Positions 26,501 to 49,497 of a DNA stretch of 64,000 nucleotides are shown one piece after another (the stretch's first letter is position 1; each line of letters begins with the position of its first letter). The notes beneath the pieces were generated by a model. That model was not told where the DNA came from and made no database searches. It worked only from the letters and a program-made list of their open reading frames with translations. The translations under genes were made by a program, and so were the position numbers. The DNA is taken from assembly GCA_005792545.1 (NCBI GenBank), contig SXRM01000249.1, positions 1 to 64,000 on the forward strand. Direction: 5' to 3'. The stretch comes from Pseudomonadota bacterium. GTDB lineage: Bacteria > Myxococcota_A > UBA9042.

Positions 26501-29500
26501 GGGCTTGCACGGACAGTTGGCGACTGGCGCACTGGACTTGCACAGGCCAGCGCTGCACAGGTCGTTAGCAGTGCAGGCATCGCCGTCGTCACAGGCTTTA
26601 TCCGTGCCCAGCGCCACATGCTGGCAGCCAAGCTTGGGCGTACACACGTCGGCAGTACAGGCATTGGCGTCGTCGCACGACACCAACGCAGGCTTAAGTT
26701 TGCGCAGGCGGTGGTCGTCATTGCCGCTGACCAGCACCTCGCCACCGGGTAGCGGCAGCACGCCGGTGGGTTCAGCAAACTGTGCGGCCGCACCGACACC
26801 ATCTACCACCCCCGAGGTCGCGCCGCCTGCGACCGTGTAGCTGCGGCCGCCCGGCACCAACGCCCGGATTCGCTGCGCGCCAGCCCCGGTTTCGGTTACC
26901 CAAACCACGCCGGCCGCATCGACGCCGAGGCCATTGGGTTCGTTCAGACGGACACCATAAGGCAGGTTGCCGTCTTGCGAACCGATGCTGTCCAGCCCGG
27001 CAAAAGTGGTGACGACGCCGGCTGGCGACAGCTTGCGCACGGTGTGGTTGTTGCCGTCGGCGATGTACAGGTTGCCGGCGGCGTCGCGGCCCAGGCCGCG
27101 CGGACCGAAAAAGCGGGCGCTGGCGGCCGCGCCATCCACATAGCCGTAGGTCACCGCCCCCGCGACGGTCGTGACTACGCCGGTCGGCGACACCGCTCGG
27201 ATCATGTGGTTGCTTTCGTCGGACACCCACAGGTTGCCGGCCGCATCGCTGACCACGTCGTTCGGGCTCTTGAAGCGCGCCGCCTTGCCGATGCCATCGA
27301 CCGAACCTTGCGCGTTGGTGCCGGCAAGCGTCGACACGCTGCCATCGGGTGCGATCTTGCGGATGCAATGGTTGTTGCGGTCGGCGACGTACACGTTGCC
27401 GGCGCCGTCGGCGGCGATGCCGGTCGGGTAGCTGAAGCGGGCAGCGGTCGGCGGACCGTCCTGGTAGCCGTTGCCGTACCACGCCGATCCGGCGTACAGC
27501 GTCACGATGCCCTGAGCAGAGATTTTGCGGACACAGTGGTTGCCGGTCTCAACGACGTACACGTTGCCCTGCGGGTCGCGGACACTGCGCGCCGGCTTGT
27601 AGTAGCGGGCGTCTTGCAGCGGCCCGTCTTGCTTGCCGATGTCTTTACCCGACCAGGTGGTGACCTGCACCGCTGGCTGACACTGGCCAGCCGTGCACTG
27701 CAGCGCCAGCGCGCACCCCTGGCCATCGTTGCAAGCCTTGCCGTCCGGCTCGGATTTCCACGTGCAGGCGCCGCTTTGGGCGTCGCAGCTGTCCGCCGTG
27801 CACGGGTTGCCGTCGTTGCAATGCGTTGAAGGTGCGGTTGCGCACTGGCCCGTAGCGGGGTCGCAGCTGTCGGTCGTGCACGGGTTGCCATCGTCGCAGC
27901 TGTGGCCGCGGAGCTCCAGCGCCCGCAAGCGCTTGTTGCCGGTGTCTGCGACCAGCATGCGGCCAAGGCCCGCGCTTGCTACACCCATGGGGCCCTGCAA
28001 TAGGGCGCTGGCGGCTTTGCCGTCGTTGGGCAGGGTCGCGCTGCAGGCAGCCACACCACAGGTAGGGCCAACCTTGGCCACGCACGCCGGCGTCCAGGTG
28101 CTGGCACAGCAAGCGGGATCCACAGCGCACACCTTGGCGACGCAGGGGTCGCAGGCTGCGGCGAGCGGCGGCCCGTTGATGCAGGCGTGATGCGCGCAAG
28201 CGGTCGTATTGGCGACCGTCCAGACCTTGCCGTCCAGCCCGAGCGCGCGCAAGCGACTGTTGCCACGGTCGGCGATCAGCAGCAGGCCGCTGGGGTCCAC
28301 AGCTACATCGTGCGGATCGTTAAACTTGGCCGTCGCCACCGCGCCATCCACCCACCCGGACGAACCGCCGCCGGCCACCGTCGTCACCACGGCCGCCGCG
28401 GTGATGCGGCGAATGGCGTGGTTGCCCGAATCGGCCACGAAAAGGTCGCCATTCTTGGCCCACGCCAGTGCGCTCAGGCTGGAGAAGGCTGCGTTGGTGC
28501 CCGTGCCATCTTTCTTGGCCGCCGTGCTGCCGGCAAACGTCGACACCGTGCCGTCCTTGGCAATCTTGCGGATGCGGTGGTTGTTGGTGTCGGCCACGTA
28601 AATCGTGCCGTCCTTGGCCACAGCGACGCCGCGCGGCGAATTGAACTTGGCCACAGTCGCGGCGCCGTCGACCCAGCCGCTGCCGCCCTGTCCGGCGACG
28701 AGCGTTACCGTGCCATCTGGCGTCACGCGCTTGATCTGATGGTTGCCCATGTCGGCGACGACCACGTCCTGACCGTCGATGGCCAGATGGTACGGTTGGC
28801 TGAAGCGGGCGCCGCTGCCTTTGCCCAGGTTGCTGCCGTACACGCTGGGCATGCCGGCGACCGTCACCACGACGCCGTCTGGACCCAAGCGGCGCACCAC
28901 ATGCAGCGCGGCCTCGCTGAACCAAATGTTGCCGGCGGCGTCTTGCGCCACGCCCGTTGGCCCGGTCAACGCCGCAGCGATGGCCGGCCCGTCGCTCATG
29001 CCGCCTGGCACTGCCGGCCCGCCGGTTAGGGTGTGCAAGTACGCGACGGGCGCGGTGGGTGCGCACACTTCGCTCTGGCAAGTGGTGTCCTTGGTGCAGC
29101 CATCGCCGTCGTCGCAGGTGGCGCCGTCGGCCTTGCCGATGCACACCGTGGCCGCGGCGCCGCAGGCCAGCGATTTCGGACCCGGCGCGCACTTGCCGGC
29201 CTTGCAGCCGTCGCCCTGGGTGCAGGCGTCGCCGTCGCTGCATGCCGCGCCATCGTAGTTGGCGGGGTGCTGGCAGCCGGCCGCCGAGCAAACGTCCTGA
29301 GTGCAGCTGTCGTTGTCGTTGCAGGCGGCGTCATCGCTGCCGTGGGTGCAGCCGATGCCAAACTCGCAGGCGTCGGCCGTGCAGGCCACTTTGTCGTCGC
29401 ACGGCCCGGCCGACGGGGTGTTGACGCAGCCCTTGACCGGGTCACAGCTCTCGATGGTGCAGGCGACGCCGTCGTCGCAGATCTTGGCGGCGTCGGCGTT

Positions 29501-31672
29501 AGCGCTGCTGCAGGCGCCGGTCGCCTTGTCGCAGCTGTCTAGCGTGCACGGCTTGCCATCGCCACAGTCTTTGGGCACGCCGGCCCCGCACGCGCCGGCT
29601 TTGCAGGTCTCGCCGCTGGTACAAGCGTTGCCGTCGTTGCACAGTTCGCTGTTCTTGAACGACACGCATCCCGCGAGCTTATTGCACACCTCGGTCGTGC
29701 ACGCGTTTTTGTCGTCGCAGTCCACGGCCTTGCCGGCGCTGCAGCTACCGCCTTTGCAGCCGTCGTCGCTGGTGCAGGCGTCGCCATCGGTGCAGGTGGC
29801 GGCATTGGCAGCGTTGACGCAGCCAGCCTTGGGGTTGCAGCTGTCGTCCGTGCACGGATTGCCGTCGTCGCAGGGCTTGGTGATGTCCAGCGTCGGCAGC
29901 GCGCACACGCCCTGTTTGCAGATCTCGCCCACCGTGCACGGCGTGCCGTCGTTGCACGGTTCGTCGTTGTGCAGGTAGGCCACCTGGCACTTGCCGGTCT
30001 TGGGCACGCAGCTGTTTTTCTGGCAGAAGTTGTCGTCCACGCTCGGACACGACACCACGGTGGCCGGGTTGACCTGGCAGACATAGGGCGCCTTGGTCTT
30101 ATTGCAGACCAGCGTGCCGTTGCACAGGTCGCCGTCCTCCTGGGTGGCGCAGTCGGCGTCGCTGTTGCATTTGCAGGTGTTGGCGCCCGCTTTGCACAGG
30201 CCTGTTGCACAGACATCGCCCTCGGTGCACACGTTGCCATCGTCGCAGGGTTTGCCGGCGTTGACCGCGGCCATGGCGCACTGTGCGGTCTTGGGGTCGC
30301 ACAAGTTGTGCGAACACGGCGTGTTGAACGCCCCCGAGCAGCCGACCACAGTCTTGGGGTTGATGGCGCAGCTGTTTTTGACTTTGTCGCAGTAGAGCGT
30401 GCCGTTGCACAGGTCGCCGTCCTCAAAGGGGCCGCAGTCGGCGTCTTCGTTGCAGATTCAGGTGTTGGTGGCGGCGGCGCAGGCCCCGGCTTTGCAGGTG
30501 TCGCCAGCCGTGCACTTGCTGCCGTCGGCCTCGCAGGTGGCGCCGTCGGGTAGCGGCACGGGCGCGCACTTGCCGGTCGTCGGCACGCAGGTGTTGACCT
30601 CGCAGGGCCCGTCGCCCGCCGTTTGGCACACCACTACGGTCGCTGGATTCGGTACACAGGTGCCGGTGGCTTTGTTGCAAAACGGCACGCCATTGCACAG
30701 GTCGCCGTCGTCTTTGCTCGCGCACTCGGCGTCGTTCTGGCAGGTGCAGGTGTTGGCGCTGGCTGTGCAATTGCCTTTCTCGCAGGCGTCGCCGGCCGTG
30801 CACGGGTTGCCATCGTTGCACGCCGTCTTGTCCGCCACCGCGACCATTGCGCACTTGCCGGTCTTACTGTCGCAGGTGTTCTTGCTGCATGCGGTGTTAT
30901 CCACCACTGGACAGACCACAACCGTAACCGGGTTCACCTGGCAGATCTTGCTGGCTTTGTTGCAGAACCACGAACCGGCGCACAAATCGGCGCCATTGAA
31001 CTTGGCGCAGTCGGCGTTGCTGGTGCAGCAGGTGTTTTCGCCGCCTTTGCAGGTGCCGGCCGCGCAGACGTCGCCTTGGGTGCACGGCAGGGTGTCCTCG
31101 CACGGGGTGCCGTCGGACTTGGGTGCCTGGTCGCACTTGCCGGTGTTGGCGTTGCAGGCAACCGTCAGGCACTGGTTGGCCGGCGCCTGGCACTTGACCA
31201 CCGTGATGGGGTTGACCTTGCACACGAATGGCGCCGTGGCCTTGTCGCAGTACAGCGTGCCGTTGCACAGGTCGCCGTCCTCCTTGGCAACGCAGTCGTC
31301 ATTGGTTTTGCAGGCACAGGTGTTTGGGCCGCTGGAGCACAGGCCTGCCTTGCACGCATCGGCCGTACACGGGTCGCCATCGTCGCACGGCGTGCCGTCG
31401 GGCTTGTCGGTGCACGGCCCAATGGGCGGGTCTATGCCATCGACCGTTTCGGGTGCGTCGCCTGGGCCCAGATCGGGCGTGTCTGGCGCTTCGTCTGGCG
31501 GGTTGTCGGGGGCCGTTGCCGCATCGGTCGCAGAGTCCGCGGCAGCCGCAACATCGGCGGCGTTGGCCGTTTCTGCCACAGCGCTATCGGCGGTCGCGAC
31601 CGGTGCCGGGTCTTCGCCGCACGAAAGCGCCAGCAGTGCACAAGACGCAAGCCAATAGTGGTGCAGTCGCAT
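23525..31672 (-). CDS. Giant Cys-rich / NHL beta-propeller / fibrinogen-like lipoprotein with internal TGA
   Basis: One reading frame of 2715 codons split in the track because codon 405 is TGA (30458-30460). The start MRLHHYWLASCALLALSC at 31672 is a lipoprotein signal. An Ala/Asp/Pro spacer is followed by Cys-rich modules (EDGDLCNG, NPCTADxC types) to about residue 870. Many NHL repeats (VADxGNHxIRK, TLAGxxxxGxxDG) then run to about 2530, interrupted by three Cys-rich blocks. The C-terminus resembles a fibrinogen-like/SUEL-type fold (QTTDGGGWTRVD ... CGFGYGC). The TGA replaces a cysteine conserved in neighbouring repeats (NTC-x-C), and downstream sequence is intact for over 2300 codons. Beta-propellers plus a lectin-like end suggest surface glycan or matrix binding; this is inferred. 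Confidence 0.8.
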
Positions 31673-36629: not shown

Positions 36630-36830
36630 CGCGGGGCTCCGGTTGGTTCAACAGAAGGACAGCTGAGGCCCGCAGCGGATGGCATGCAGTGGGGGATGCT
36701 GAACCGGATCGGCAGAGCTCTGGTGTGTGCAGTGCTTGGCGTTGACACGTCTTGTCTTGCAGCGTTACGGTTGCGACGTTCACGGGCTGCTGCACTTGGT
36801 CATGCGGCGGTCGGCAGGTTGTGCCGTTGC

Positions 36831-36881
36831 AGGAGGCCCTGATGTGTAAGCCCCCCCCCCCGGTTGACGTTTTCTGAAATG
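36831..36881 (+). promoter_or_regulatory. Strong SD, ATG, C11 tract and leader before RHS gene
   Basis: aggagg (36831-36836) lies five bases before ATG 36842. That ATG reads through eleven C (36851-36861) and, as sequenced, ends at TGA 36875-36877 as an 11-residue leader, one base before the RHS ATG at 36879. With ten or thirteen C the same ATG is in frame with the lipoprotein signal. This is the arrangement of a slipped-strand phase-variable gene; reinitiation after the leader is another possibility. Confidence 0.6.
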
Positions 36882-39800
36882 TCCAGAATCGCTTGCTTGC
36901 TCGCGATTGCGCTTCTCGCCGCGTGCACTGTCGATGTCGCGGTGGCCCCGGACCGGGATAGTGGTGAGAGCGATCTCAAGGTGGCCGACTCTGGGTTCGC
37001 GACGAGATCGACAGCGCTGACCAATCCGGGCATCGAGCTCAAGTCGCAAGATCTCGCGACGATTGAGGTGGGCACGCAATCCGCTGTGGACGTGCCTGTC
37101 ATTTTTGAAGTCGCCGTTGCGAACCCTAGCCCGATAACCGACGAGATTCGCTGCCGCCGAGACGGTCTGATCGAGACGGTGTACGGGGGCCTGCAAAGCG
37201 GCCAATTCACGCATACGTTTACTCAAGTGCCACGCGGCATGCATGACCTGGCGTGTTCGCTGTTTATTGGCGCCGACCTGGTCCAACGAGCGACGCGCCG
37301 CGTATTTGTTTCCGGCGACTGCACCGGCGGCGACTGCGACGATGGCAACCCCTGCACCAACGACCCGTGCATCAATGGCAAATGCGTCTACGAGGCACTG
37401 CCAAACTGCTGCCTTTCCGACGATGCTTGTCCGAAGTCCCACACCTGCGTTCAGTTGACAGCGGGACCCAAGGTCTGCTCGCCTTGTGCGAGCGATAGCG
37501 TCTGCGACGACGGTGCCAACGCCGGCGGTACCGACTGTGCCCAAGACAAATGCAACCTCGACGCAAGTTTAGGCCCCTACGCGCTTTGCGAACATCCGAC
37601 CAACTGCAATACGGAGAGGCCACTACGCGGTTGCACTACCTTCACGGGCAACCTGGGCGGGTGGATAGGCCCCGCGGCGTTTTCGCACCAAGTCGCTGAC
37701 CTTACAGGCTCTGCATCGCCAGGATCGGTGCGCTTCCAATCGGCGTCGTCCGACAATGGGCCGTTTTGCCTGCGCTCACCCGAGTTTGTGGCACCGCCAG
37801 CCGGGCCGACAACGTGGACCGTGCAGTTCTGGCACAAGCTGGTGTCAGGGTCGCCAGTGACGTTATCGGTGACGCCGGTGTACCCGAACGCCGGCGGGTG
37901 GGCACAATCGTCTGCACCGCCCTGGACCAAACAAATCCCCGCCCCCGCCGGGCAGCCGGTGCTGGAGTCCATTGTTCCGGTGGACCCATTGGGCGGCGGC
38001 ACAATCAAGCTCGACATCTGCGTCACTGTGGCTGGTGCCGCGGTTTGGGACCTGGACGACGTCTGCATCGCTGCCGGCACTGCCCCGACGCTCGTTTGCA
38101 AGCCGATTGTGCACATGACCGCAGGCGGCAAGCGGACCGACAAAGTGTACGATTTGCATGCCCTGGGTGGCTCTGCCGGCTATCCATTGCAATTCAGTAA
38201 GCTCGCAGGGCCATCGTGGCTGGGATTCTACCCGGCGCTTTACGATGGCCACCTTGGGCAATGGCTGGCTAGCCCGGATCTGCGGTCGATGGCCAAGGAA
38301 CAGGCTGGCTACCACGCAGTTACGATCCGAGCGAGCGATACTGTACTGCAAGCGCAGTGCACGACGAGCGCGAATATCCGGCATCCGAGCGGGCTACTGA
38401 TCTGGGCGCCCGGGGCGCCGGACCATGCCTTTCAGCCTTTGCGCGATGCGGCGAAGGCGTTGGGTATGAGCTGGCTGGATACGCCGGCGCTTGCCAATGT
38501 CGGGGACCTATCGGCATTCCACACGATTATCGGCGTGTTGGGGATTGGCGTTGCTCCGCACTTCCCGTCTGCGCAGGAGGCTGAACGGCTGATTGCGCAT
38601 TGGCAGTCAGGTCGGCTGGCCCTGGCTGGCAGCGCGTACTGGTCGGCGAATGACGGTGGCTGGTCGGCCAACCAAAAGGCAATGCGCCAAGCGTTTGGCA
38701 CAACAGGCTATTCTGCCCCAGGCCAGCCCAACCTCGAACCCTCCGCTACTGGCTTCGCACTGCACCTCGACACCAACCAAGTCCCCGCAGCGCCACAACC
38801 CTATGCCATCAAGGAGGACGAGAACCTCTGGGCCAACAACGACCACCTGACCGTAACCAATGCCGCCACGAGCTGCCTGCCGGTGTTGCGCGTCCAGCCG
38901 TTCACCGGCCCGGCCTTCTGGACCGAAATTGCGTGCGAGCACCAGGGCGGCAACCGCACGATCGCGATGTCCGCACCCTTCGGCGCGTTCAAGGACGCGC
39001 TGGGCCACGCCTCGACCGTCGAGCATGCCAAGCGGATCCTGCAGTTCCTGTCTAACGGCTTTCCGCCGTGCGCGAGCAGTTCGGACTGCAACGACAACGA
39101 TGCATGCACAACAAACGCTTGCGTCGACGGCAAATGCGACTTTGCCGCGCCGGTCAACTGCAATGACGCCAACGATTGCACCGTGGACAGTTGCTCGAAA
39201 GACACCGGGTGCGCGCACTATGCTGACCCCAACGCGACATGCAACGACACCACGACCTGTACCGGCGACGAACACTGCCAGGCCGGCGTGTGCATTACCG
39301 GCGGCGTGATGGCGTGTGACGACACCGACGGCAACCCTTGCACCTCGCCCTCCTGCATTGCCTGGGTCGGTTGCGTCAACTTCAACAATGCCAACGCCTG
39401 CAACGACCAAAACCCGTGCACGGAAAACGACCCGTGCCAGGGCGGCGTCTGCGCTGGGGCGAACCAGACGGTGGCCGCGACCGGGTACTGCGCGCCCGAC
39501 CCGATCGGCCCCCTGCCGCCGGACCCGACGGCACTTGCGCCTCCGTTGCCCACCACCACCGTCACCTCGTTTTCGGCAGCCGTCGCCTTCCTGTGGTCCG
39601 GTGCCAATGCCATCCAGAAGCCGCTGCCGAATGCGGCGCCGCTGAACTTCGACCCCAGAGTCATCGCAGTCAGCCGCGGCAAGGTCATGCAGCGGAGTGG
39701 CAATGGCGTTGCGCCCCTGCCCAAGGCCAAAGTGTGGGTACCGGCGCACCCCGAATGGGGCTACGTGCTGACGCGCATCGATGGCAGCTTCGACTTCGTG

Positions 39801-42800
39801 GCCGAGCAGGGCGCCGGTATCGTGGTCGAGTTCGTCAAGCCGGGGTTCTTCCCCGTTCATCGCAAGATCGACGTGCCCAGGCGCGATTACGTGGTGCTTG
39901 CTGAAGTTGTGCTGGTGCAGCCGGATCCGGTATCGAAAGTGTTGCAATTTCCGACGCCGCCCCTAGCGGTTGGTGCACTGCTGAGCTCTGTTGTCCAGGG
40001 CCCGCCGGGCAGCACCAAGGTCGACGACGGCCCACGCCAGACCATGCTGCTCGTGCCGCCCGAGACGACGGCGGTAGTCCATGGCCCAGGTGGCGCGCTG
40101 ACCTCGCCGCCACAACTGACCTTGCGGGTGACTGAGTACACGGTCGGGCCAAATGGCCCGGCGGCAATGCCCGCAAATCTGCCGCCGGCGTCCGGCTATA
40201 CGTGGTGTGGCGAGTTCAGCGCGGATGAGGTGATGGCGGCTGGCCCCAAAGCGTGGGTCGAGTTCGGCAAGCCCCTGTCGGTGTACCTCGACAACTTTCT
40301 GGATCTGCCCGTCGGTCGGACCGTGCCGCTCGGCTACTACGACCGCACCGATGCCGTGTGGAAGCAGCCGCGCCCAAAGACGGACGGCAATGGCAATGCG
40401 CTCGCCAAGACTGTCGGCAACGCGCTGGTTATCGCCGCCGGCATTTACCAAGGTGAACTCAAAGTCTGGCTGACGCCGCCAACCCAGGGCCTGGCCACGC
40501 CTGGCTTGCCCAATGCGCTCCTTGACGCGATGGGCATGGCCGCTTGGGAACGTGACGCGCTCAAACAGCGACTCCAGATGTTGCCCGGTGGCGCGCCTGC
40601 TCAGCCCAAGTCGTTCTGGCGCTTTCAGATTGACCACATGACACCTTGGGATGCCAACCTGGGCTATTCCTACGTCGCCGAAGGTCCTACGGAAGACCCG
40701 CCAGGTATTTCGGGGCCGCCAGACGACACCGAAACGCCGACGTGCAAGAAAGGTTCGATCATCGAATGTGAAACGCAAGGCCTGGGCGAGGTCTTTCCCG
40801 TCGTTGGGACGCCGCTCGCGCTTCGCTACCAGAGTCGCCGCACGCCCGGTGGCCGGCAGCGGTTGGTGGAGGTGCCAGCGCCGACCGCGACCACGCCAGC
40901 GAAGGCGACCTCAACGGTCAACGTGGCCGGCCAGACCGTGCCACAGACCGGTACGGGCGGCTCGGGCGGCAAAGTGTTCCAGTGGGATGGCAAGGACGCG
41001 TTCGGACGCACGGTCAACGGTTACCAGCTCGCTGCGGCAACGACGACCTATGCCTACAATAACAAGCGGATTACTGTCCCCATTTCCGAGGGTTCGATTG
41101 GTTTCTCGATCACGCTCCAGGACATCGCCATTTCTTTGGGGTGCACATGCGCGTCCGATGCGAGCGCCACGCTCACCTGCCACTACCCGGACGGCTCGCT
41201 ATGCATGGCGATGGGCGGCACCGAGCCGACCTCGACCTTGGTCAAGTTCCCGCCGCCGCTATTCGGCACCCAGGCCGCGACGACGAAGGGCTTGGCGACC
41301 GTTGAAGTACCTGTGCTCGCCTTTAGCCCGAATCTCGCTCAGCGGACGAACACGCGCACGGTTCACAAGCGCATCGGCAACGTCGCCCCTGATGGCGACC
41401 TCGGCGGGCTGAGCCTGGGCGTGCACCATGTGTACGACCCTGGGTCACAAACCTTGGTGCTGGGCAGTGGCAAGGTGCGCAACCTGCCGACAAACAAGCT
41501 CACCGTGTCGTCGCACGCCGGGGCCGGGACCACGGCGTTGTCGACCGTGCTTGCGGAGCCGCCCGTGCCCATGGCGGGCATTGAACTGACCAACAAGATT
41601 GACGCGCTGGTGGTGACACCCCATGGTTACACCTACTTCGCCTCGGAAGGCAACCTCTATGAACTGAACCCAGCGGGTAACGTGCGCCGGGCCTGTCAGC
41701 AAGCAGGCGGCTTCGCAGTCAGGTCCCTCGCTCTTGCTGGCCCGATTACGCTGCTGGTCGGTATGCACAACAATCTGAACGGTGTGGTCCACAAGACACA
41801 GGTTGGCGCGGCATCCTGCGGCGGTGCGCCGGCCTACGGCAACGCAAGCGCCACCAGTGCCGGTAATTGGGGGCCTGCGAAAGACGCCAAGCTTCTGCCG
41901 TCCGCGCTGGCGGTCGCCCCAGACGGCGCAGTCTTCATCGCAGAGGGTGCTGAGGACCCCGACATGCGCAAGGTTCGCCGGATCGATCCCAGCGGTGTGA
42001 TTGCGCCGTATTTGGGCTCGGGCCTCGACCCGGATCTTTCGACTTCGTGTGAAGACATCGACCAGCCGGCGACCCAAGTTTGCATCGGCCGGCCCAGTGC
42101 ATTGGCGGTGGATGGCGGCGGCAACCTGTTCGTTGGTACCGACACCGGGCGGCTCTTTTGGGTCAGCGGCGCAGATGGCCGCGTCCGTCGAATCCACGTC
42201 GAATTGCCTGCCACGCAAGCGGGCACAACCCTGCTCGGCCTGTATGCTGGGGCTACCAATGTCATCGGCTACTGCCAGTTCGGCGGCAATGGCCAAGGCA
42301 CTGTCAAGCTTGCCATGACCGGCCAGCCCGTTTCGGGCGTCTGGCGCCTGCTTGGCGCGGACCAGACGCTCGCAGCTGACAGCGGCGCCGCGCAAGTAGC
42401 AAACCTGCTCGGCGGCTCGGCCGGGGACCTTGCCATTTCCAACTGCACCGCCGTGGCCCACACCCCACAAGGCGATTGGTATGCCGCTGCGCTTGTCGAC
42501 TACGTTGCGCAATCACGGCGGATCCTGCGCGTCACGCCCCAAGGCCAGGCTTGGACCGGGGGCAACCTCTACCTGCCGTCCGAGGATGGTAGCGAGGCCT
42601 ACGAATTCACTGCCGACGGCCGGCACGTAAGCACGAAAGACGCAACCACCGGCGCGACCCTGTGGGCGTTTCAATACGACCCGCCATTCTCTGGCAAGTT
42701 GGTTTCCGTCACCGACGCCGACGGCATCCTCACCACCATCACGCGAGACGCCGCCGGCAAATCCGTTGCATTGTCGGGCCCGCCGCAGCAAGGCGCGATC

Positions 42801-45800
42801 ACCAAGATCGCGCTCAACGACAGCGGTCTTGCCAGCAAGTTCATCAATCCGGCCGGCGAGACGACGACACTGGTCTATGAGACAGCGCAAGCCAAGCATG
42901 GGCTGCTGAGCAAGCTCATCCAACCGAGCGGCGACATCAGTACCTTTGCATGGGACGACCGCGGTCGGCTGCAGAAGGACACCAATGCGGCCGGCCAGTA
43001 CAAGCAGTTGGCTACGAACGAGACGGTCGCCGAAAACAAGGCCGTGACGACCGTGACGACCAACCTCGGCCGCGTTACCACCTATGACACCAAGCACAAC
43101 CCAGACGGCAGCAGCGAGCGCAAGACGGTCACGCCGGCCGGGCTGCTGACGCTCCGGCGCGAGTTCATCACGACCGCGTGGGTCATGGCCGATGGCACCG
43201 TCAAGCAAACAGCCGAAGCCGGCAGCCAGCGCGCCAACTACTTCCGCCGGGATCCTGATGGCACGGCGACCTGGCTGCGCAATGGCCCGGATACCCAGTG
43301 GGGCGCCGGGGGGCAGCAGCCTGTTGAGGCGTTTGTCTCAGTGCCTGCAATGCCCGCGGGCGAGACCTATGGGCCGGCGTTGTTGGCCCGCCAGTCGCGC
43401 GTTGAGGAGATCACCAAGCAAGCCGGTGGCCAGCCCGTGCCTCTGGTCAACCGGTTGGTGACCGACTCGATGGACGTGACGGACCTGGGCGTGCTCGGGT
43501 CAGTATCTTTCAAGCAAAAGGCCGAAATTGTCGCGGGGACGTGGCAGGTAACCTCAACATCTGCCCAGAACCGCGTGGTGACCACCTATTTCGACGCCAG
43601 CTACCGCCCGGAGCGGACGGTTGTCTCCGGCTTGCCAGAAACCAAGACCGCCTACAACACCGATGGCACCGTGGCGACGGTGACCACCACATCCGCGCTT
43701 GACCAGAACCAGGTGCGGACGGTGTCCTACACCTATGCCGGCGGCCGTGTGTCCAAGGTGACAGCGACGGGCACCATCTCAGGCACCACCAACACGACCA
43801 CCGCTAGCGTGGAAATCGGCACCGATGCCGCGTGGCGCGTATCGAGCCAAAAATTCACTGACGGCCCGACGATCACGTTGGCGCGCGCCGCCGCCGGCCG
43901 CCTTGCCGGCGTTTCGATGCCCAAGTCAGCGGTGGAACTCGAGCCGCCGGTGTACAGCTTCACGTATGGCAAGGCGGACCAACCGAAAAACGAAGCCTTG
44001 CCGGCGGTGGCGCCCAAGCAGGCGTGGCTGACACAGTTCGAGTACGACAACGACGGCAATCTTGCGAAGGCGACGCGGCCGGATGGCAAACAGGTCAAGT
44101 TCGAGCGCAATGGCCTGGCGCAAGTCGAGAATATTGAAGCGCCCAACGACGCCGAGCCCAACGACCCCGTTGTAACCACGGTTGCCCTCAAACCGGAGTA
44201 CGACGCGGCGGGACGGGTCAAGAAAATCGCGCACAGCAAGTACGGTAGCTTGGGCTTCGCCTGGCGCGGCGTCCTCAACGGCCGTGAAACCTGGCTGGCG
44301 CCGGATGGCAACGACCCGCCCGGCAGTAACGGCCCAGCCGCCAATTGGAGCGTGCTGCGCGACTACGATTCCGCGCTGCGACTGCGCCGGGTTGGGGTGC
44401 TCAAGCCTGACGTGGCCGGCCTGGCCAACTACCATTGGGTGCACGCGTTCCTCGATGGCGATGGCTTGCTGACGGGCTTGCAACTCAGGAGCGGCAACCT
44501 GGAGAGCCCGTACCCAGTCACAGTGGCCATGGGCACGTATGGTCGCGACGCTGCCAATGGCCTGCTGACGGGTCGGTTGCTCGGCGCGGTGGCGGAGGCT
44601 CGCAGCTATGACGGGTTTGCCGATCCTTTGACCTACCTCGTTGAGATGCCAGCGACCGCGCAGAGCCCGGCAACATTGCTGTACCGCGAGGACTACACCA
44701 AGCGCGATGGGCTGGGCCGCCTGATGGAACGAAAAATCAAGTACGGTGGCGTCGACGACACTTGGACCTATACCTACGACGGGGCCCGAGGCTGGCTCAA
44801 GACTGCGCACAAGAACGGTGTTCTGGTTGGCGAATGGAAGTACGACGTCCGCGGCAACCGCACGTCGTCGATGGAGAATGGCGTCACGACGACGGCAGCG
44901 TTTGACGTGCAGGACAAGCAACTGACCGCGGGCGACCGCACGTACACCTACGGCGACGACCTTGGGCGGGTGACCGGCGAGTCGGAACCGGGCGTCGAGT
45001 CGCGCAGCTACACTTGGGATGCTGGCGGGCGGTTGGTCAAAGCCGTCCTCGTCAAGGACGGCGCGACTACGACCGTCGACTACGTGCTCGACGCTGCCGG
45101 TCGGCGTATTGGTAGGAAGCTCAACGGCGTGGTACAGGCCGGCTGGCTCTACGACGGCGCGCTGCGGCCGACGGCGCAGCTCGATGCCAACGGCAAGTTG
45201 GTGTTGCGGTTTGCCTATGGATCGCTGGGGCATTCGCCCGATGCCGCGGTCAAGTTCAACACTGAGACCGGTGCGGTCGCGGGCGTTTACTGGTTTGTGC
45301 ATGACCAGGTCGGTAGTGTGGTGGCTGTGGTGGACACGGCGACAGGGGGCGCTGTCGAGCGGTGCAGCTACCAGCCGTGGGGCAAGCGAGATTGCGAACC
45401 GCTGCCGCCGCCGCCGTTCACGCATCCGTTCGGCTTCGCTGGTGGGCTGCACGACCTTGACACCGGGCTGGTTCGGTTTGGGGCGCGCGAGTACGACCCG
45501 CGGATCGGGCGGTGGCTGGCGCGGGATCCGATTGGGTTGGCGGGGGGGTGGAACCCGGCAGCGTACGTGGGCAATGACCCGATTGGCGCAACCGACCCAA
45601 GCGGACTGCGGCCGGATTTTGACATGGGCCCAATTGACCAGTGCCGCGCACTAGATTCCGGCTGTCGCGAGGATTTCCTAAAGGTCGCCGAAGTTTGGGA
45701 AGCTATAGCAACAGTTCTGTTTTCAGGCCCACGGTGTGCCGGCCGTAGCCCTGGCAAGGATGGCTACGCCTTCTCGGGCCATCCTCGCGGTCCCTTGAAG

Positions 45801-46046
45801 GGCAGTACGGCGGGCCGCGGGCGGTCGAACTCGGGCAAAGGGGGTGGACCGGCTGGCCGGCCACCAGAGAAACTTACTGACTGGGAAGTCGACCAGTTGA
45901 CGAAAGCCGGCCACCATCCCCATTCCTTGAAACCCAATTCCAAATACGATTTGTACAAGGACGGCGACGGCAATATTTCGGTGCACCGGAAGGGCGGCAG
46001 CGGTGTCGGCGATCCAACTAACCTCAACATTAATGACTTCAAATGA
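36879..46046 (+). CDS. Teneurin-like RHS/YD-repeat polymorphic toxin lipoprotein
   Basis: 3055 aa from ATG 36879 (MSRIACLLAIALLAAC lipobox). In order: Cys-rich modules near 150-230 and 725-860; a transthyretin/carboxypeptidase-regulatory-like Ig domain near 935-1018 (LPKAKVWVP ... DGSFDF); a plug-like region near 1310 (LRYQSRRTPGGRQ); NHL-type propeller sequence near 1570-1870; YD repeats to about 2870 (YTYDGARGWL, YDxxGNR types); and the RHS core end ARDPIGLAGG...DPSGL. The last ~147 residues are a swapped-in toxin ending SKYDLYKDGDG...VHRKGG...DPTNLNIND, resembling polymorphic toxin type 33 nucleases. The stop overlaps the immunity gene by ATGA. The domain order matches eukaryotic teneurins closely. 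Confidence 0.85.
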   Translation: MSRIACLLAIALLAACTVDVAVAPDRDSGESDLKVADSGFATRSTALTNPGIELKSQDLATIEVGTQSAVDVPVIFEVAVANPSPITDEIRCRRDGLIETVYGGLQSGQFTHTFTQVPRGMHDLACSLFIGADLVQRATRRVFVSGDCTGGDCDDGNPCTNDPCINGKCVYEALPNCCLSDDACPKSHTCVQLTAGPKVCSPCASDSVCDDGANAGGTDCAQDKCNLDASLGPYALCEHPTNCNTERPLRGCTTFTGNLGGWIGPAAFSHQVADLTGSASPGSVRFQSASSDNGPFCLRSPEFVAPPAGPTTWTVQFWHKLVSGSPVTLSVTPVYPNAGGWAQSSAPPWTKQIPAPAGQPVLESIVPVDPLGGGTIKLDICVTVAGAAVWDLDDVCIAAGTAPTLVCKPIVHMTAGGKRTDKVYDLHALGGSAGYPLQFSKLAGPSWLGFYPALYDGHLGQWLASPDLRSMAKEQAGYHAVTIRASDTVLQAQCTTSANIRHPSGLLIWAPGAPDHAFQPLRDAAKALGMSWLDTPALANVGDLSAFHTIIGVLGIGVAPHFPSAQEAERLIAHWQSGRLALAGSAYWSANDGGWSANQKAMRQAFGTTGYSAPGQPNLEPSATGFALHLDTNQVPAAPQPYAIKEDENLWANNDHLTVTNAATSCLPVLRVQPFTGPAFWTEIACEHQGGNRTIAMSAPFGAFKDALGHASTVEHAKRILQFLSNGFPPCASSSDCNDNDACTTNACVDGKCDFAAPVNCNDANDCTVDSCSKDTGCAHYADPNATCNDTTTCTGDEHCQAGVCITGGVMACDDTDGNPCTSPSCIAWVGCVNFNNANACNDQNPCTENDPCQGGVCAGANQTVAATGYCAPDPIGPLPPDPTALAPPLPTTTVTSFSAAVAFLWSGANAIQKPLPNAAPLNFDPRVIAVSRGKVMQRSGNGVAPLPKAKVWVPAHPEWGYVLTRIDGSFDFVAEQGAGIVVEFVKPGFFPVHRKIDVPRRDYVVLAEVVLVQPDPVSKVLQFPTPPLAVGALLSSVVQGPPGSTKVDDGPRQTMLLVPPETTAVVHGPGGALTSPPQLTLRVTEYTVGPNGPAAMPANLPPASGYTWCGEFSADEVMAAGPKAWVEFGKPLSVYLDNFLDLPVGRTVPLGYYDRTDAVWKQPRPKTDGNGNALAKTVGNALVIAAGIYQGELKVWLTPPTQGLATPGLPNALLDAMGMAAWERDALKQRLQMLPGGAPAQPKSFWRFQIDHMTPWDANLGYSYVAEGPTEDPPGISGPPDDTETPTCKKGSIIECETQGLGEVFPVVGTPLALRYQSRRTPGGRQRLVEVPAPTATTPAKATSTVNVAGQTVPQTGTGGSGGKVFQWDGKDAFGRTVNGYQLAAATTTYAYNNKRITVPISEGSIGFSITLQDIAISLGCTCASDASATLTCHYPDGSLCMAMGGTEPTSTLVKFPPPLFGTQAATTKGLATVEVPVLAFSPNLAQRTNTRTVHKRIGNVAPDGDLGGLSLGVHHVYDPGSQTLVLGSGKVRNLPTNKLTVSSHAGAGTTALSTVLAEPPVPMAGIELTNKIDALVVTPHGYTYFASEGNLYELNPAGNVRRACQQAGGFAVRSLALAGPITLLVGMHNNLNGVVHKTQVGAASCGGAPAYGNASATSAGNWGPAKDAKLLPSALAVAPDGAVFIAEGAEDPDMRKVRRIDPSGVIAPYLGSGLDPDLSTSCEDIDQPATQVCIGRPSALAVDGGGNLFVGTDTGRLFWVSGADGRVRRIHVELPATQAGTTLLGLYAGATNVIGYCQFGGNGQGTVKLAMTGQPVSGVWRLLGADQTLAADSGAAQVANLLGGSAGDLAISNCTAVAHTPQGDWYAAALVDYVAQSRRILRVTPQGQAWTGGNLYLPSEDGSEAYEFTADGRHVSTKDATTGATLWAFQYDPPFSGKLVSVTDADGILTTITRDAAGKSVALSGPPQQGAITKIALNDSGLASKFINPAGETTTLVYETAQAKHGLLSKLIQPSGDISTFAWDDRGRLQKDTNAAGQYKQLATNETVAENKAVTTVTTNLGRVTTYDTKHNPDGSSERKTVTPAGLLTLRREFITTAWVMADGTVKQTAEAGSQRANYFRRDPDGTATWLRNGPDTQWGAGGQQPVEAFVSVPAMPAGETYGPALLARQSRVEEITKQAGGQPVPLVNRLVTDSMDVTDLGVLGSVSFKQKAEIVAGTWQVTSTSAQNRVVTTYFDASYRPERTVVSGLPETKTAYNTDGTVATVTTTSALDQNQVRTVSYTYAGGRVSKVTATGTISGTTNTTTASVEIGTDAAWRVSSQKFTDGPTITLARAAAGRLAGVSMPKSAVELEPPVYSFTYGKADQPKNEALPAVAPKQAWLTQFEYDNDGNLAKATRPDGKQVKFERNGLAQVENIEAPNDAEPNDPVVTTVALKPEYDAAGRVKKIAHSKYGSLGFAWRGVLNGRETWLAPDGNDPPGSNGPAANWSVLRDYDSALRLRRVGVLKPDVAGLANYHWVHAFLDGDGLLTGLQLRSGNLESPYPVTVAMGTYGRDAANGLLTGRLLGAVAEARSYDGFADPLTYLVEMPATAQSPATLLYREDYTKRDGLGRLMERKIKYGGVDDTWTYTYDGARGWLKTAHKNGVLVGEWKYDVRGNRTSSMENGVTTTAAFDVQDKQLTAGDRTYTYGDDLGRVTGESEPGVESRSYTWDAGGRLVKAVLVKDGATTTVDYVLDAAGRRIGRKLNGVVQAGWLYDGALRPTAQLDANGKLVLRFAYGSLGHSPDAAVKFNTETGAVAGVYWFVHDQVGSVVAVVDTATGGAVERCSYQPWGKRDCEPLPPPPFTHPFGFAGGLHDLDTGLVRFGAREYDPRIGRWLARDPIGLAGGWNPAAYVGNDPIGATDPSGLRPDFDMGPIDQCRALDSGCREDFLKVAEVWEAIATVLFSGPRCAGRSPGKDGYAFSGHPRGPLKGSTAGRGRSNSGKGGGPAGRPPEKLTDWEVDQLTKAGHHPHSLKPNSKYDLYKDGDGNISVHRKGGSGVGDPTNLNINDFK

Positions 46047-46420
46047 AAACATTCGTTTTGCTTACGATTGGCCCACTTCAGGGCACAGCACCGCGTGCCG
46101 ACGACATTGATGCGCTGGCCAAGAGCGCTGGCGTCGACATTGAAGACCGCACGTGGTTTGGGATGCCGTATTGGCGGTTCTCAAGCCACAGGTCCGGAAT
46201 CGCGCTGGCGTTGCATGTCGCCGAGATCGTGCCAACTCTGGTGCGTCTGACCCAGCTCGCCCGCCGAGGCGCCGTCGCAGTACCTGCCCAGTTGGGTCTG
46301 GTCGTTTACGGCAGCGACAACTGGGACATCTGCTTTTCTGGAAAGCAACTGCGTCAGTTTGCGCGCCTGGGTATAGACTTGGAAGTACAGCACTACTATT
46401 CAAATATGAATGCCGAGTGA
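46043..46420 (+). CDS. Probable immunity protein for the RHS toxin
   Basis: 125 aa, acidic-neutral, without a signal peptide, starting MKTFVLLTIGPLQG. Its ATG overlaps the RHS stop (ATGA), the typical coupling of toxin and immunity genes. No family was recognised. The role is inferred from position: it would bind the type-33-like toxin tip and protect the producer's cytoplasm. Confidence 0.7.
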   Translation: MKTFVLLTIGPLQGTAPRADDIDALAKSAGVDIEDRTWFGMPYWRFSSHRSGIALALHVAEIVPTLVRLTQLARRGAVAVPAQLGLVVYGSDNWDICFSGKQLRQFARLGIDLEVQHYYSNMNAE

Positions 46421-46486: not shown

Positions 46487-46762
46487 GCAACGAGCACGCT
46501 GGACTATTGGTCATTTCGGCACTGGTTCGGCCCGGCAGTCAGATTTTGGGGCCTGGCCGCCATTGGCGACGGCTAGGGGTTTGCAGTCCGTTCTGCGACT
46601 TCCACGAACGCCTGGCTTGCCGGGCCGAGTTGGCTTGATGGGGCATCGCACTTCCGGTTTCGTGTGGAAACGCAGTATTGTGTCGCATTGGTCGGCTTGG
46701 GGGCCGTCGTTGGGCTGGCGCTGATGTTGGTCGTCCGCATCGGGTTGAGGTGGATAAGATGA
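46487..46762 (+). pseudogene. Possible broken small membrane-protein gene
   Basis: One frame reads TLDYWSFRHWFGPAVRFWGLAAIGDG, meets TAG at 46574-46576, then continues in the same frame to a clear hydrophobic helix (VALVGLGAVVGLALMLVV) and basic end RIGLRWIR before TGA 46760-46762. A TTG near 46487 could start it. It may be a decayed orphan immunity or membrane gene behind the RHS locus. Chance hydrophobicity cannot be excluded. Confidence 0.3.
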
Positions 46763-46842
46763 CCGGCAAAGGGCACTTGGCGATCGGCGACCGCATGGCT
46801 GCATTCGGAAACGGCCGTTGCGAACCCCCGGCTGCACCCGCC

Positions 46843-49497
46843 GTGCTATCTTGCCGGTTACTCTGCGTTGCCGCTGTCCACTTTGGTTGCAGCGAAGACG
46901 CCGAAAGCGGCAAAGCCACCGCCCAGCGTGCGGATATCGCTGTCGTCGAAGCCGACGCGGCAGCAGACGCGCCCACCGACGCGCCCCAACCCCCGGCCAC
47001 AGCAAAACCCTGCCCCCCGACCCCCTGCCCCGACCAAAACCCCTGCACCCACGACTACCCCCGCCCCGACTGCACCTGCGCCCACGACCCGCTGCCTTTG
47101 GCTTGCAACGACAACAACGCCTGCACCACCGCCGACTTCTGCGGCCCCGACGCCACCTGCGCAGGCTTGCCGCTACCCGCCACCGCCTGCGCCGACGCCA
47201 ACCCCTGCACGCTCGACGCCTGCGACCCCAAGCTCGGCTGCGTCCACTCGCCTGCCGACACGACCACGCCTTGCGACGACGGCAACCCGTGCACCACCCC
47301 CGACGGCTGCAAGGCCGGGGCATGCTCGCCGGGACCCAAGCTGCCGTGTGACTGCACCACCACCGCCGACTGTGCCTCCAAAGAGGACGGCAACAAGTGC
47401 AACGGCACGCTGTACTGCGACACCACCGCGCCGCCGTTTCAGTGCAAAGTGCTTCCCGGCTCCGTCGTTGTCTGCCCGGCCGGCTTCGACACCCCGTGCA
47501 CGCAGCTCAAGTGCCTCGACAGCACCGGGCAGTGTGCGCCGCTTGGCGTCAACGAAGGCGGGCCGTGCAGCGACGGCAACGCGTGCAGCGTAGGCGACCA
47601 CTGCTCCGTTGGCGCTTGCCTGCCGACCGGCGTCACCACCTGTGACGACGGCAATCCCTGCACCGCCGACGGCTGTGGGCTGGCGTTTGGCTGCAACCAC
47701 AAGCCGGTGGTCGACGGAACAGCTTGCGAAGCAGACGGCAGTGTGTGCACGCAGGCCGATGCGTGCGCCACCGGGAGCTGCGCCGCCGGCAAGCCGCTGC
47801 TGTGCAATGACGGCAACCAGTGCACCTTCGACGACTGCTCGCCGGCGGTCGGCTGCGTCGCCATCTTCACCACAGCCAGTTGCAATGACGGTAATGCGTG
47901 CACCGGCGGCGATGAGTGCTACAAGGGCCTCTGCTTCGGCAAAGAGGTCAATTGCGACGACGGCAACGCGTGCACCGTGGACCTGTGCGCGGCTGGCAGC
48001 GGGTGCGACCATGTTATCGCGCCGTTCGCTTGCTCGGACGGCAACGCATGCACGGTCGGCGATGCTTGCAAGGGCGGGGTGTGCACGCCGGGGCCGGCCA
48101 CCGTGACGTGCAATGACAACAGCGTCTGCACGGTTGACAGCTGCGTGCCCGCGAAGGGCTGCAACTTTGCGCCGTTGCCCGAAGACACGACGTGTACCGA
48201 TGATGTGGCGTGTACAAGCGGCGATGCTTGCAAGGCGGGCAAGTGTGTTGGGGCGGCGGCGGTTTGGAAAGTGGAGTTTGGTCTGGCAAATAGCGACATT
48301 CCGCGCAAACTGCTCGTCTTGCCTGACGGATACGTGGTCGTGGGCTACTCAAAGTCGTTTTCGACGGTCAGTCGCGCCTGGTTCGTGCGCATTGACACGC
48401 ACGGCAACCTCCTATGGCAAAAGTCGGCTGGTGGCAAAACGAACATAGAGGTTTATTCGGCTACCGGCGTAGGCGGCGGTCTGCTAGTTGTGGCGACTGT
48501 CCAGGGCGACAGCGCCACGGCCTCGAAGACCTGGTTGAGCAAGGTCACCGGCAATGGGGACGTCGCGTGGACGGAACTCGGCGTGCCTTGCTACGGACAC
48601 ACAGCGGGTGAGAGCATTATTGTCCCAGCGCCCGCGGGTTTTGCCTGCATATCGGCGCTGTATGGCATGGGCATGGCGCGCCTTGACCAGCAGGCCAAGC
48701 TGCTGTGGACCGGCAATCTCGGCCAGCCTGCGGATCAGACAAGGACAATAACGGCAATGCCCGGGGGCTTTGTGCTTGCGGGCCAGGTGCCGATCGAACA
48801 AAAAGGGGGGCAACAGCTTCGTTTTGTTGCTACCGATGACGTTGGCAAGCAGATTTGGCAGTTGACCGCGCCCGTGCAAGGCTCGCCCAGTGTCATCGAT
48901 TCAGACAGCGGCCCACTCGGGCCAGTCTTTGTTGGCAGCGCGACTTGGATTGAGACTATAAACATCAAGAAGTTTGCCCGCGCGCTGCAGGTTGATGCCG
49001 GCGGCAAGCTTGTTTGGGATGCGCTGTATTCGTTTGCACCCAGTTGGGCAGAAGCAGTGGGTGTCGCGGCCGGTCCAGAAGGCCTCGCCGTCGCCGGTGT
49101 CGTTATCGCTTCAACGCCTCCCTTCAAGGCGACACCCATGCTGTTGAGGACGGATGCCGCCGGCTTGGAGCGCTGGCGGGCATTGTTCGAGATCAATTCC
49201 GACGGCAATACAGTTGATGTTGCGTTTGTCGATGGCGGCATCACCGTCCTCGGCGGCTATGATCCCCCAGGCGACGACAAGATTGACGGCTGGCTCGCCC
49301 ATACCGACGCATTCGGCAACTATTCGTGCGCCAACTCCGGCCCTTGCTACGCCATGAAACTCGCCGACTGCGACGACAACAACCCTTGCACCTACGACCA
49401 GTGCGACGCCGCGCACAATGGGTGTTGGAATCCTAAGCAGCCCGACAGCACGCCCTGCGGCGGGGGCAAGGTCTGCAAGGCGGGGGTATGCCAGTAA
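46843..49497 (+). CDS. Cys-rich lipoprotein with beta-propeller-like domain
   Basis: About 884 aa. GTG 46843 gives a compact lipoprotein signal (MLSCRLLCVAAVHFGC); ATG 46795 or 46759 would add a less typical N-terminus. A Pro/Ala spacer leads into about 430 residues of Cys-rich modules (CDDGNPCTTPDGC, SCVPAKGCNF). Residues about 470-830 form repeated blade-like units (GYVVVGYSKS, GNLLWQKS, GGKLVWDALYS, LLRTDAAGLERW) of a PQQ/delta-60-type propeller. A final Cys module ends CGGGKVCKAGVCQ. It is surface-displayed by inference. Confidence 0.8.
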   Translation: MLSCRLLCVAAVHFGCSEDAESGKATAQRADIAVVEADAAADAPTDAPQPPATAKPCPPTPCPDQNPCTHDYPRPDCTCAHDPLPLACNDNNACTTADFCGPDATCAGLPLPATACADANPCTLDACDPKLGCVHSPADTTTPCDDGNPCTTPDGCKAGACSPGPKLPCDCTTTADCASKEDGNKCNGTLYCDTTAPPFQCKVLPGSVVVCPAGFDTPCTQLKCLDSTGQCAPLGVNEGGPCSDGNACSVGDHCSVGACLPTGVTTCDDGNPCTADGCGLAFGCNHKPVVDGTACEADGSVCTQADACATGSCAAGKPLLCNDGNQCTFDDCSPAVGCVAIFTTASCNDGNACTGGDECYKGLCFGKEVNCDDGNACTVDLCAAGSGCDHVIAPFACSDGNACTVGDACKGGVCTPGPATVTCNDNSVCTVDSCVPAKGCNFAPLPEDTTCTDDVACTSGDACKAGKCVGAAAVWKVEFGLANSDIPRKLLVLPDGYVVVGYSKSFSTVSRAWFVRIDTHGNLLWQKSAGGKTNIEVYSATGVGGGLLVVATVQGDSATASKTWLSKVTGNGDVAWTELGVPCYGHTAGESIIVPAPAGFACISALYGMGMARLDQQAKLLWTGNLGQPADQTRTITAMPGGFVLAGQVPIEQKGGQQLRFVATDDVGKQIWQLTAPVQGSPSVIDSDSGPLGPVFVGSATWIETINIKKFARALQVDAGGKLVWDALYSFAPSWAEAVGVAAGPEGLAVAGVVIASTPPFKATPMLLRTDAAGLERWRALFEINSDGNTVDVAFVDGGITVLGGYDPPGDDKIDGWLAHTDAFGNYSCANSGPCYAMKLADCDDNNPCTYDQCDAAHNGCWNPKQPDSTPCGGGKVCKAGVCQ

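What the first reader, a model, noticed from the sequence alone, without database searches (positions are those of the whole stretch)
36831..36881. C11 tract between a perfect Shine-Dalgarno/ATG and the RHS toxin: phase-variation switch
aggagg plus ATG 36842 is the best initiation site in the region, but with 11 C it makes only an 11-residue leader whose TGA is one base before the RHS ATG. With 10 or 13 C the same ATG is fused in frame to the signal peptide. Homopolymer slippage would thus switch expression or change initiation of a costly contact toxin.
Basis: partly seen in the sequence, partly recalled or inferred. Interest (0 to 1): 0.7.

Follow-up and report, generated by a model that had tools for sequence, protein, structure and literature searches.

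The report
C-tract switch before RHS toxin genes
A run of 11 cytosines sits between the best start codon and the body of a giant bacterial toxin gene, and an old sister gene in the same genome keeps the same start and a 12-cytosine run, so copying slips there probably turn these toxins on and off, although no switching has been seen yet.

Summary
In detail: AGGAGG 36831-36836, ATG 36842, C11 36851-36861, TGA 36875-36877, ATG 36879. C10 or C13 fuses ATG 36842 in frame to the lipoprotein signal of a 3,055-residue RHS protein with an Ntox33 tip and a 4-bp-overlapping downstream ORF (putative immunity gene). The window lies in a Myxococcota metagenome assembly. Its closest paralogue (contig C257, HNH tip) has the identical SD-ATG-TGT-AAG, then C12, then a spacer of the same 17 nt; it too is out of frame, and C10 or C13 opens it. 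These are the only internal C runs of 11 or more in the assembly. The paralogues are old (dN 0.32, dS about 1.4; fourfold sites 47% identical), yet the 32 nt up to the tract are identical and the 5'UTR is 90% identical, so leader and tract look selected, and neither gene is decaying. In 22 relatives the matching SD-ATG is in frame with the lipoprotein signal and has no tract. [quoted passage not shown] No read-level or population data were available, so switching itself is inferred. Main rivals: polyproline leader peptide with translational coupling, wrong tract length in the assembly, frameshifting in expression.

The parts
36742..36771 (+). Candidate promoter: TTGACA (36742-36747), 18-nt spacer, TACGGT (36766-36771). 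The paralogue has the same two hexamers at the same spacing.
   Evidence: Sequence and paralogue alignment. The consensus scan does not score it because TACGGT matches TATAAT at only 3 of 6 positions. Inferred.
36768..36829 (+). 5' untranslated region
   Evidence: 56/62 identical between paralogues, against 47% at fourfold-degenerate sites. Not more structured than shuffles (z = +1.5 and +1.2).
36831..36836 (+). Shine-Dalgarno AGGAGG
   Evidence: inside a 32-nt stretch identical in the paralogue, ending at 36850.
36842..36877 (+). Leader ORF in the assembled C11 phase: MCKPPPPVDVF-stop. Start codon of the fused protein in C10 or C13.
   Evidence: the matching SD-ATG is in frame in 22 relatives.
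36851..36861 (+). C11 homopolymeric tract, proposed slippage site. The paralogue has C12 at the same place.
36862..36878 (+). 17-nt spacer between tract and internal ATG; length conserved in the paralogue. It fixes the outcome of each of the three frames.
   Evidence: 14/17 identical, no gap.
36879..36926 (+). Internal ATG without Shine-Dalgarno, and lipoprotein signal MSRIACLLAIALLAAC (lipobox LAAC)
   Evidence: aligned with the signals of relatives.
36879..46046 (+). RHS protein, 3,055 aa: lipoprotein signal, Cys-rich repeats, teneurin TTR-like and YD-shell domains, RHS core
   Evidence: Pfam PF25020, PF25023, PF05593; NCBIfam TIGR03696. dN 0.315 and dS 1.44 against the paralogue.
45867..46034 (+). 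C-terminal toxin domain Ntox33 (PF15533), residues 2997-3052
   Evidence: E 7.7e-11. The paralogue has an HNH nuclease tip instead.
46043..46420 (+). Putative immunity gene, 125 aa, overlapping the RHS stop by 4 bp
   Evidence: no Pfam or NCBIfam match. At the same position the paralogue has a DUF4265 protein, also with a 4-bp overlap. Role inferred from position.

Best explanation
The C tract is a contingency (phase-variation) site inside the 5' end of an RHS polymorphic-toxin gene. Shown by the sequence: a strong SD-ATG at 36842 is followed by the tract; with C10 or C13 that ATG is in frame with the lipoprotein signal and the whole RHS protein, and with C11 or C12 its reading frame stops after 11 or 8 residues. 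Inferred: replication slippage on the tract switches cells between full expression (C10, C13) and low expression, where only reinitiation at the SD-less ATG 36879 could make the protein (the stop ends 1 nt upstream in the C11 phase and 11 nt upstream in the C12 phase). The paralogue on contig C257, with a different toxin tip, carries the same device with its own tract, so the two toxins could be switched independently.
For: Frame outcomes are the same in both paralogues for C9 to C14. The paralogue has an identical SD-ATG-TGT-AAG and C12 rather than C11. The two genes are old (fourfold identity 0.466, dS 1.44), yet 32/32 nt before the tract and 56/62 nt of 5'UTR are identical: P about 2e-11 and 4e-13 at the gene-wide rate, 2e-9 and 6e-10 at the rate of the first 100 codons. 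They are the only internal C runs of 11 or more in the assembly. In 22 relatives the matching SD-ATG is in frame with the lipoprotein signal and has no tract, with a similar n-region length in the short members. The 9.2-kb ORFs are intact, with dN/dS about 0.22, so the genes are presumably expressed at least in some cells. The same layout is described for inlA of Listeria, where the A6 allele gives an 8-residue product (PMC2831843).
Against: No tract-length variation has been observed, and both assembled copies are out of frame. No other genome searched has this leader (51 others of the class), so there is no allele of another strain. Reinitiation at ATG 36879 might make enough protein in every phase. 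A C13 tract at the start of a radC-like gene is also out of frame in another assembly, so an out-of-frame state alone is weak evidence.
Confidence: 0.68

Rival explanations
1. Fixed leader peptide: the short ORF with four consecutive prolines is a regulatory uORF. Ribosome pausing on CCC codons (EF-P, tRNA-Pro supply) and termination next to ATG 36879 set RHS translation by coupling; tract length is not switched.
For: PPP or PPPP is encoded in every phase. Runs of three or more prolines stall ribosomes unless EF-P acts (PMC4176338, abstract). TGA-A-ATG in the C11 phase is typical of coupling (own knowledge). The leader is conserved.
Against: The paralogue's C12 gives a different stop, 11 nt upstream. 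CCC is not the preferred proline codon in the large ORFs counted (CCG 257, CCC 169), so a stable leader would be expected to mix codons. The 5'UTR is not unusually structured. In relatives the matching ATG starts the protein itself.
Confidence: 0.15
2. Assembly error: the true tracts are C10 or C13 and both genes are simply in frame from ATG 36842.
For: The genome is a fragmented metagenome assembly (435 contigs, 77.75% complete); homopolymers are where consensus errors fall; relatives are in frame.
Against: Two separate loci would both have to be wrong. Very long ORFs (3,060, 2,274, 1,607 codons) are intact, so indel errors are rare. A true C10 or C13 tract would itself be expected to slip.
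Confidence: 0.1
3. Frameshifting in expression: ribosomes shift +1 on CCC codons, or RNA polymerase slips on the tract, so a fraction of product is in frame at fixed DNA length.
For: C11 needs a +1 shift, and +1 shifting at CCC codons is documented (PMC5009743).
Against: The C12 paralogue would need a different shift (-1 or +2). No stimulatory structure stands out.
Confidence: 0.07

Closest known systems
5' homopolymer phase variation (inlA A6/A7 of Listeria monocytogenes; swrA of Bacillus subtilis; PMC2831843)
   Same: A homopolymer within the first codons; a one-base change switches between the full protein and a peptide of about 8-11 residues.
   Different: Those are poly(A) tracts in low-GC Firmicutes with measured or observed length change. 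Here it is poly(C) upstream of an RHS toxin in a high-GC Myxococcota assembly, with no observed change.
G/C homopolymer contingency loci of Campylobacter (PMC8355987) and Bordetella pertussis (PMC1891110)
   Same: G/C tracts that slip and change expression (abstracts).
   Different: Those genomes carry many such tracts, often in surface-structure genes; this assembly has very few long ones, two of them on RHS paralogues.
RHS polymorphic toxins (Ntox33 and HNH tips)
   Same: RHS core, variable C-terminal toxin domain, downstream immunity-like gene.
   Different: N-terminal lipoprotein signal with Cys-rich and teneurin-like domains, and a C-tract leader. My searches of the open library found no RHS toxin reported as phase-variable by a homopolymer.
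SitA lipoprotein toxins of Myxococcus (PMC8546572)
   Same: Polymorphic toxins with a lipobox in the same phylum.
   Different: That paper does not mention RHS; outer-membrane exchange was not tested here.

Membership tests
Homopolymer (slipped-strand) phase-variable gene | Repeat tract long and rare for the genome | tested here: met
   Only two internal C runs of 11 or more in 7.03 Mb, both on these paralogues
Homopolymer (slipped-strand) phase-variable gene | One-base tract change switches the reading frame of an intact downstream gene | tested here: met
   C9-C14 translations in both paralogues; intact 9.2-kb ORFs
Homopolymer (slipped-strand) phase-variable gene | Initiation signals upstream of the tract are the genuine start | tested here: inconclusive
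   SD-ATG conserved and in frame in 22 relatives; not shown by proteomics
Homopolymer (slipped-strand) phase-variable gene | Tract length differs between related copies or strains | tested here: inconclusive
   C11 against C12 between paralogues of one genome; no second strain available
Homopolymer (slipped-strand) phase-variable gene | Reversible switching in a clonal population | not testable with these tools
   No reads or cultures
RHS polymorphic toxin | RHS repeats and RHS-associated core | tested here: met
   PF05593, TIGR03696
RHS polymorphic toxin | Variable C-terminal toxin domain after the core | tested here: met
   Ntox33 here, HNH in the paralogue
RHS polymorphic toxin | Cognate immunity gene downstream | tested here: inconclusive
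   4-bp-overlapping small ORF, no family match here; DUF4265 protein in the paralogue
RHS polymorphic toxin | Toxic activity and neutralisation | not testable with these tools
   Needs expression assays

The most novel reading that the evidence does not exclude
A Myxococcota lineage keeps a small set of RHS toxins with different tips, each behind its own C-tract switch with three outcomes (fused, closely coupled restart, distant restart), so clonal cells vary combinatorially in which competition toxins they display.
Probability: 0.45. Interest if true: 0.68.

Novelty: new member of a known kind. Interest (0 to 1): 0.52.

Why it matters
Homopolymer phase variation is best known in host-associated pathogens and their surface antigens. 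A switch maintained by selection on contact-type toxins of an environmental Myxococcota would mean that kin competition itself is diversified by slippage. It would also raise the question of how OFF cells keep immunity when the putative immunity gene overlaps the toxin gene. The prediction (tract lengths in reads at two loci) is cheap to test.

Tried and rejected
Promoter-spacing switch: rejected, because the tract lies about 80 nt downstream of the candidate -10, behind an SD-ATG. Structured 5'UTR or riboswitch: folding is no better than shuffles. The leader elsewhere: absent from the 51 other genomes of the class at up to 3 mismatches and from viral contigs. Closest RHS relatives in sister species: on G001 contig C336 the frame runs off the contig start, so the gene's start is missing; G002 contig C224 was fetched but gave no clear comparable start. 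Other C runs of 9 or more in the family: no common placement at gene starts. Phylum scan for SD-ATG-C10: scattered cases in both phases, useful only as background. Literature searches found no phase-variable RHS toxin, within an open-access library only.

Full report
AGGAGG lies at 36831-36836, ATG at 36842, eleven C at 36851-36861, TGA at 36875-36877 and the next ATG at 36879. Translating C9 to C14 shows that C10 and C13 join ATG 36842 in frame to MSRIACLLAIALLAAC and the long ORF, C11 and C14 stop one base before ATG 36879, and C9 and C12 stop earlier. The next longest C or G run in the window is 7.

The window is contig C189 of a 7.03-Mb, 435-contig assembly, 77.75% complete. Related public records are Myxococcales and Deltaproteobacteria metagenome assemblies. 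Six C/G runs of 10 or more occur in the assembly; three reach 11, and one of these is at a contig end. The other two are this tract and one at C257:14523-14534.

C257 encodes the closest paralogue. Both proteins have an RHS core, teneurin-like domains and a lipoprotein signal, but different tips: Ntox33 here, HNH there. Each is followed by a small ORF overlapping its stop by 4 bp; the one in C257 matches DUF4265. These are putative immunity genes by position.

Upstream homology starts near a TTGACA/TACGGT pair with 18-nt spacing in both and includes the same SD-ATG-TGT-AAG. The paralogue then has C12 and a 17-nt spacer of the same length, so all three frames have the same outcomes as in the window.

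Conservation of the leader is not due to youth. The paralogues have dN 0.315 and dS 1.44, and fourfold sites are 46.6% identical, 54% in the first 100 codons and 63% in the first 60. Yet the 32 nt up to 36850 are identical and the 5'UTR is 56/62 identical. At the gene-wide fourfold rate these have P about 2e-11 and 4e-13; at the 100-codon rate 2e-9 and 6e-10; at 63% my own arithmetic gives about 4e-7 for the 32 nt. The 32-nt stretch is the longest identical run in the 2-kb stretch aligned, so its P is for a chosen stretch. Partial gene conversion at the 5' end could contribute to the gradient but would not readily explain the peak. Low dN/dS says both genes are used, although both are assembled out of frame.

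Relatives show which start is ancestral. In 22 N-terminal homologues from the family, many of them giant Cys-rich lipoproteins, an SD-ATG of the form GAGGAtTGTG-ATG begins MRNQH-like sequence in frame with the lipoprotein signal, without a homopolymer. For L003 and L005 the script chose a further ATG upstream in the same frame. One hit at a contig end (L199) lacks the motif. These homologues are 25-47% identical over the N-terminus, so equivalence of the start codons is an inference from position and signal layout.

Best reading: a coding-frame phase switch. Shown are the anatomy, the rarity of the tract, the conservation and the frame logic. Slippage, ON/OFF expression and biological role are inferred. 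The closest published parallel in layout is inlA of Listeria, where an A6 allele gives an 8-residue product (PMC2831843). My searches found no RHS toxin described with such a switch.

Rivals are kept open: a polyproline leader with translational coupling, a wrong tract length in the assembly, and frameshifting in expression at CCC codons (PMC5009743). Read-level tract lengths at the two loci would separate most of them. A scan of 379 genomes of the phylum found a few other SD-ATG-C10 arrangements in both phases, including secreted proteins and a radC-like gene (recognised by eye); this is background, not proof.

Noticed in passing
L208 (G002 C1, reverse strand) and L209 (G000 C134): Intergenic repeat of the form CCCCCCC(n)ATTGTTCAGATCNNTGTTTT, three copies within about 300 bp in one species and one copy with C10 after a Cys-rich gene in the window's genome.
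   Followed up: no
L245 (G217 C129): A radC-like gene whose SD-ATG is followed by C13 and is out of frame in the assembly; G217 has 13 SD-ATG-C10 pattern matches against 0 for the reversed control, several of them overlapping hits on one tract.
   Followed up: partly
L241 (G291 C123) and L242 (G140 C42): Secreted or lipoprotein-like genes of other families with SD-ATG-C11 and SD-ATG-C10 leaders out of frame with the downstream ORF.
   Followed up: partly
L037 (G000 C84): A C10/G10 run near the start of a gene on the reverse strand, possibly in a promoter spacer.
   Followed up: no
window 23525-30349 and 46678-49497: Other large Cys-rich repeat proteins lie near the RHS gene; the first also has NHL and teneurin NHL repeats.
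   Followed up: no
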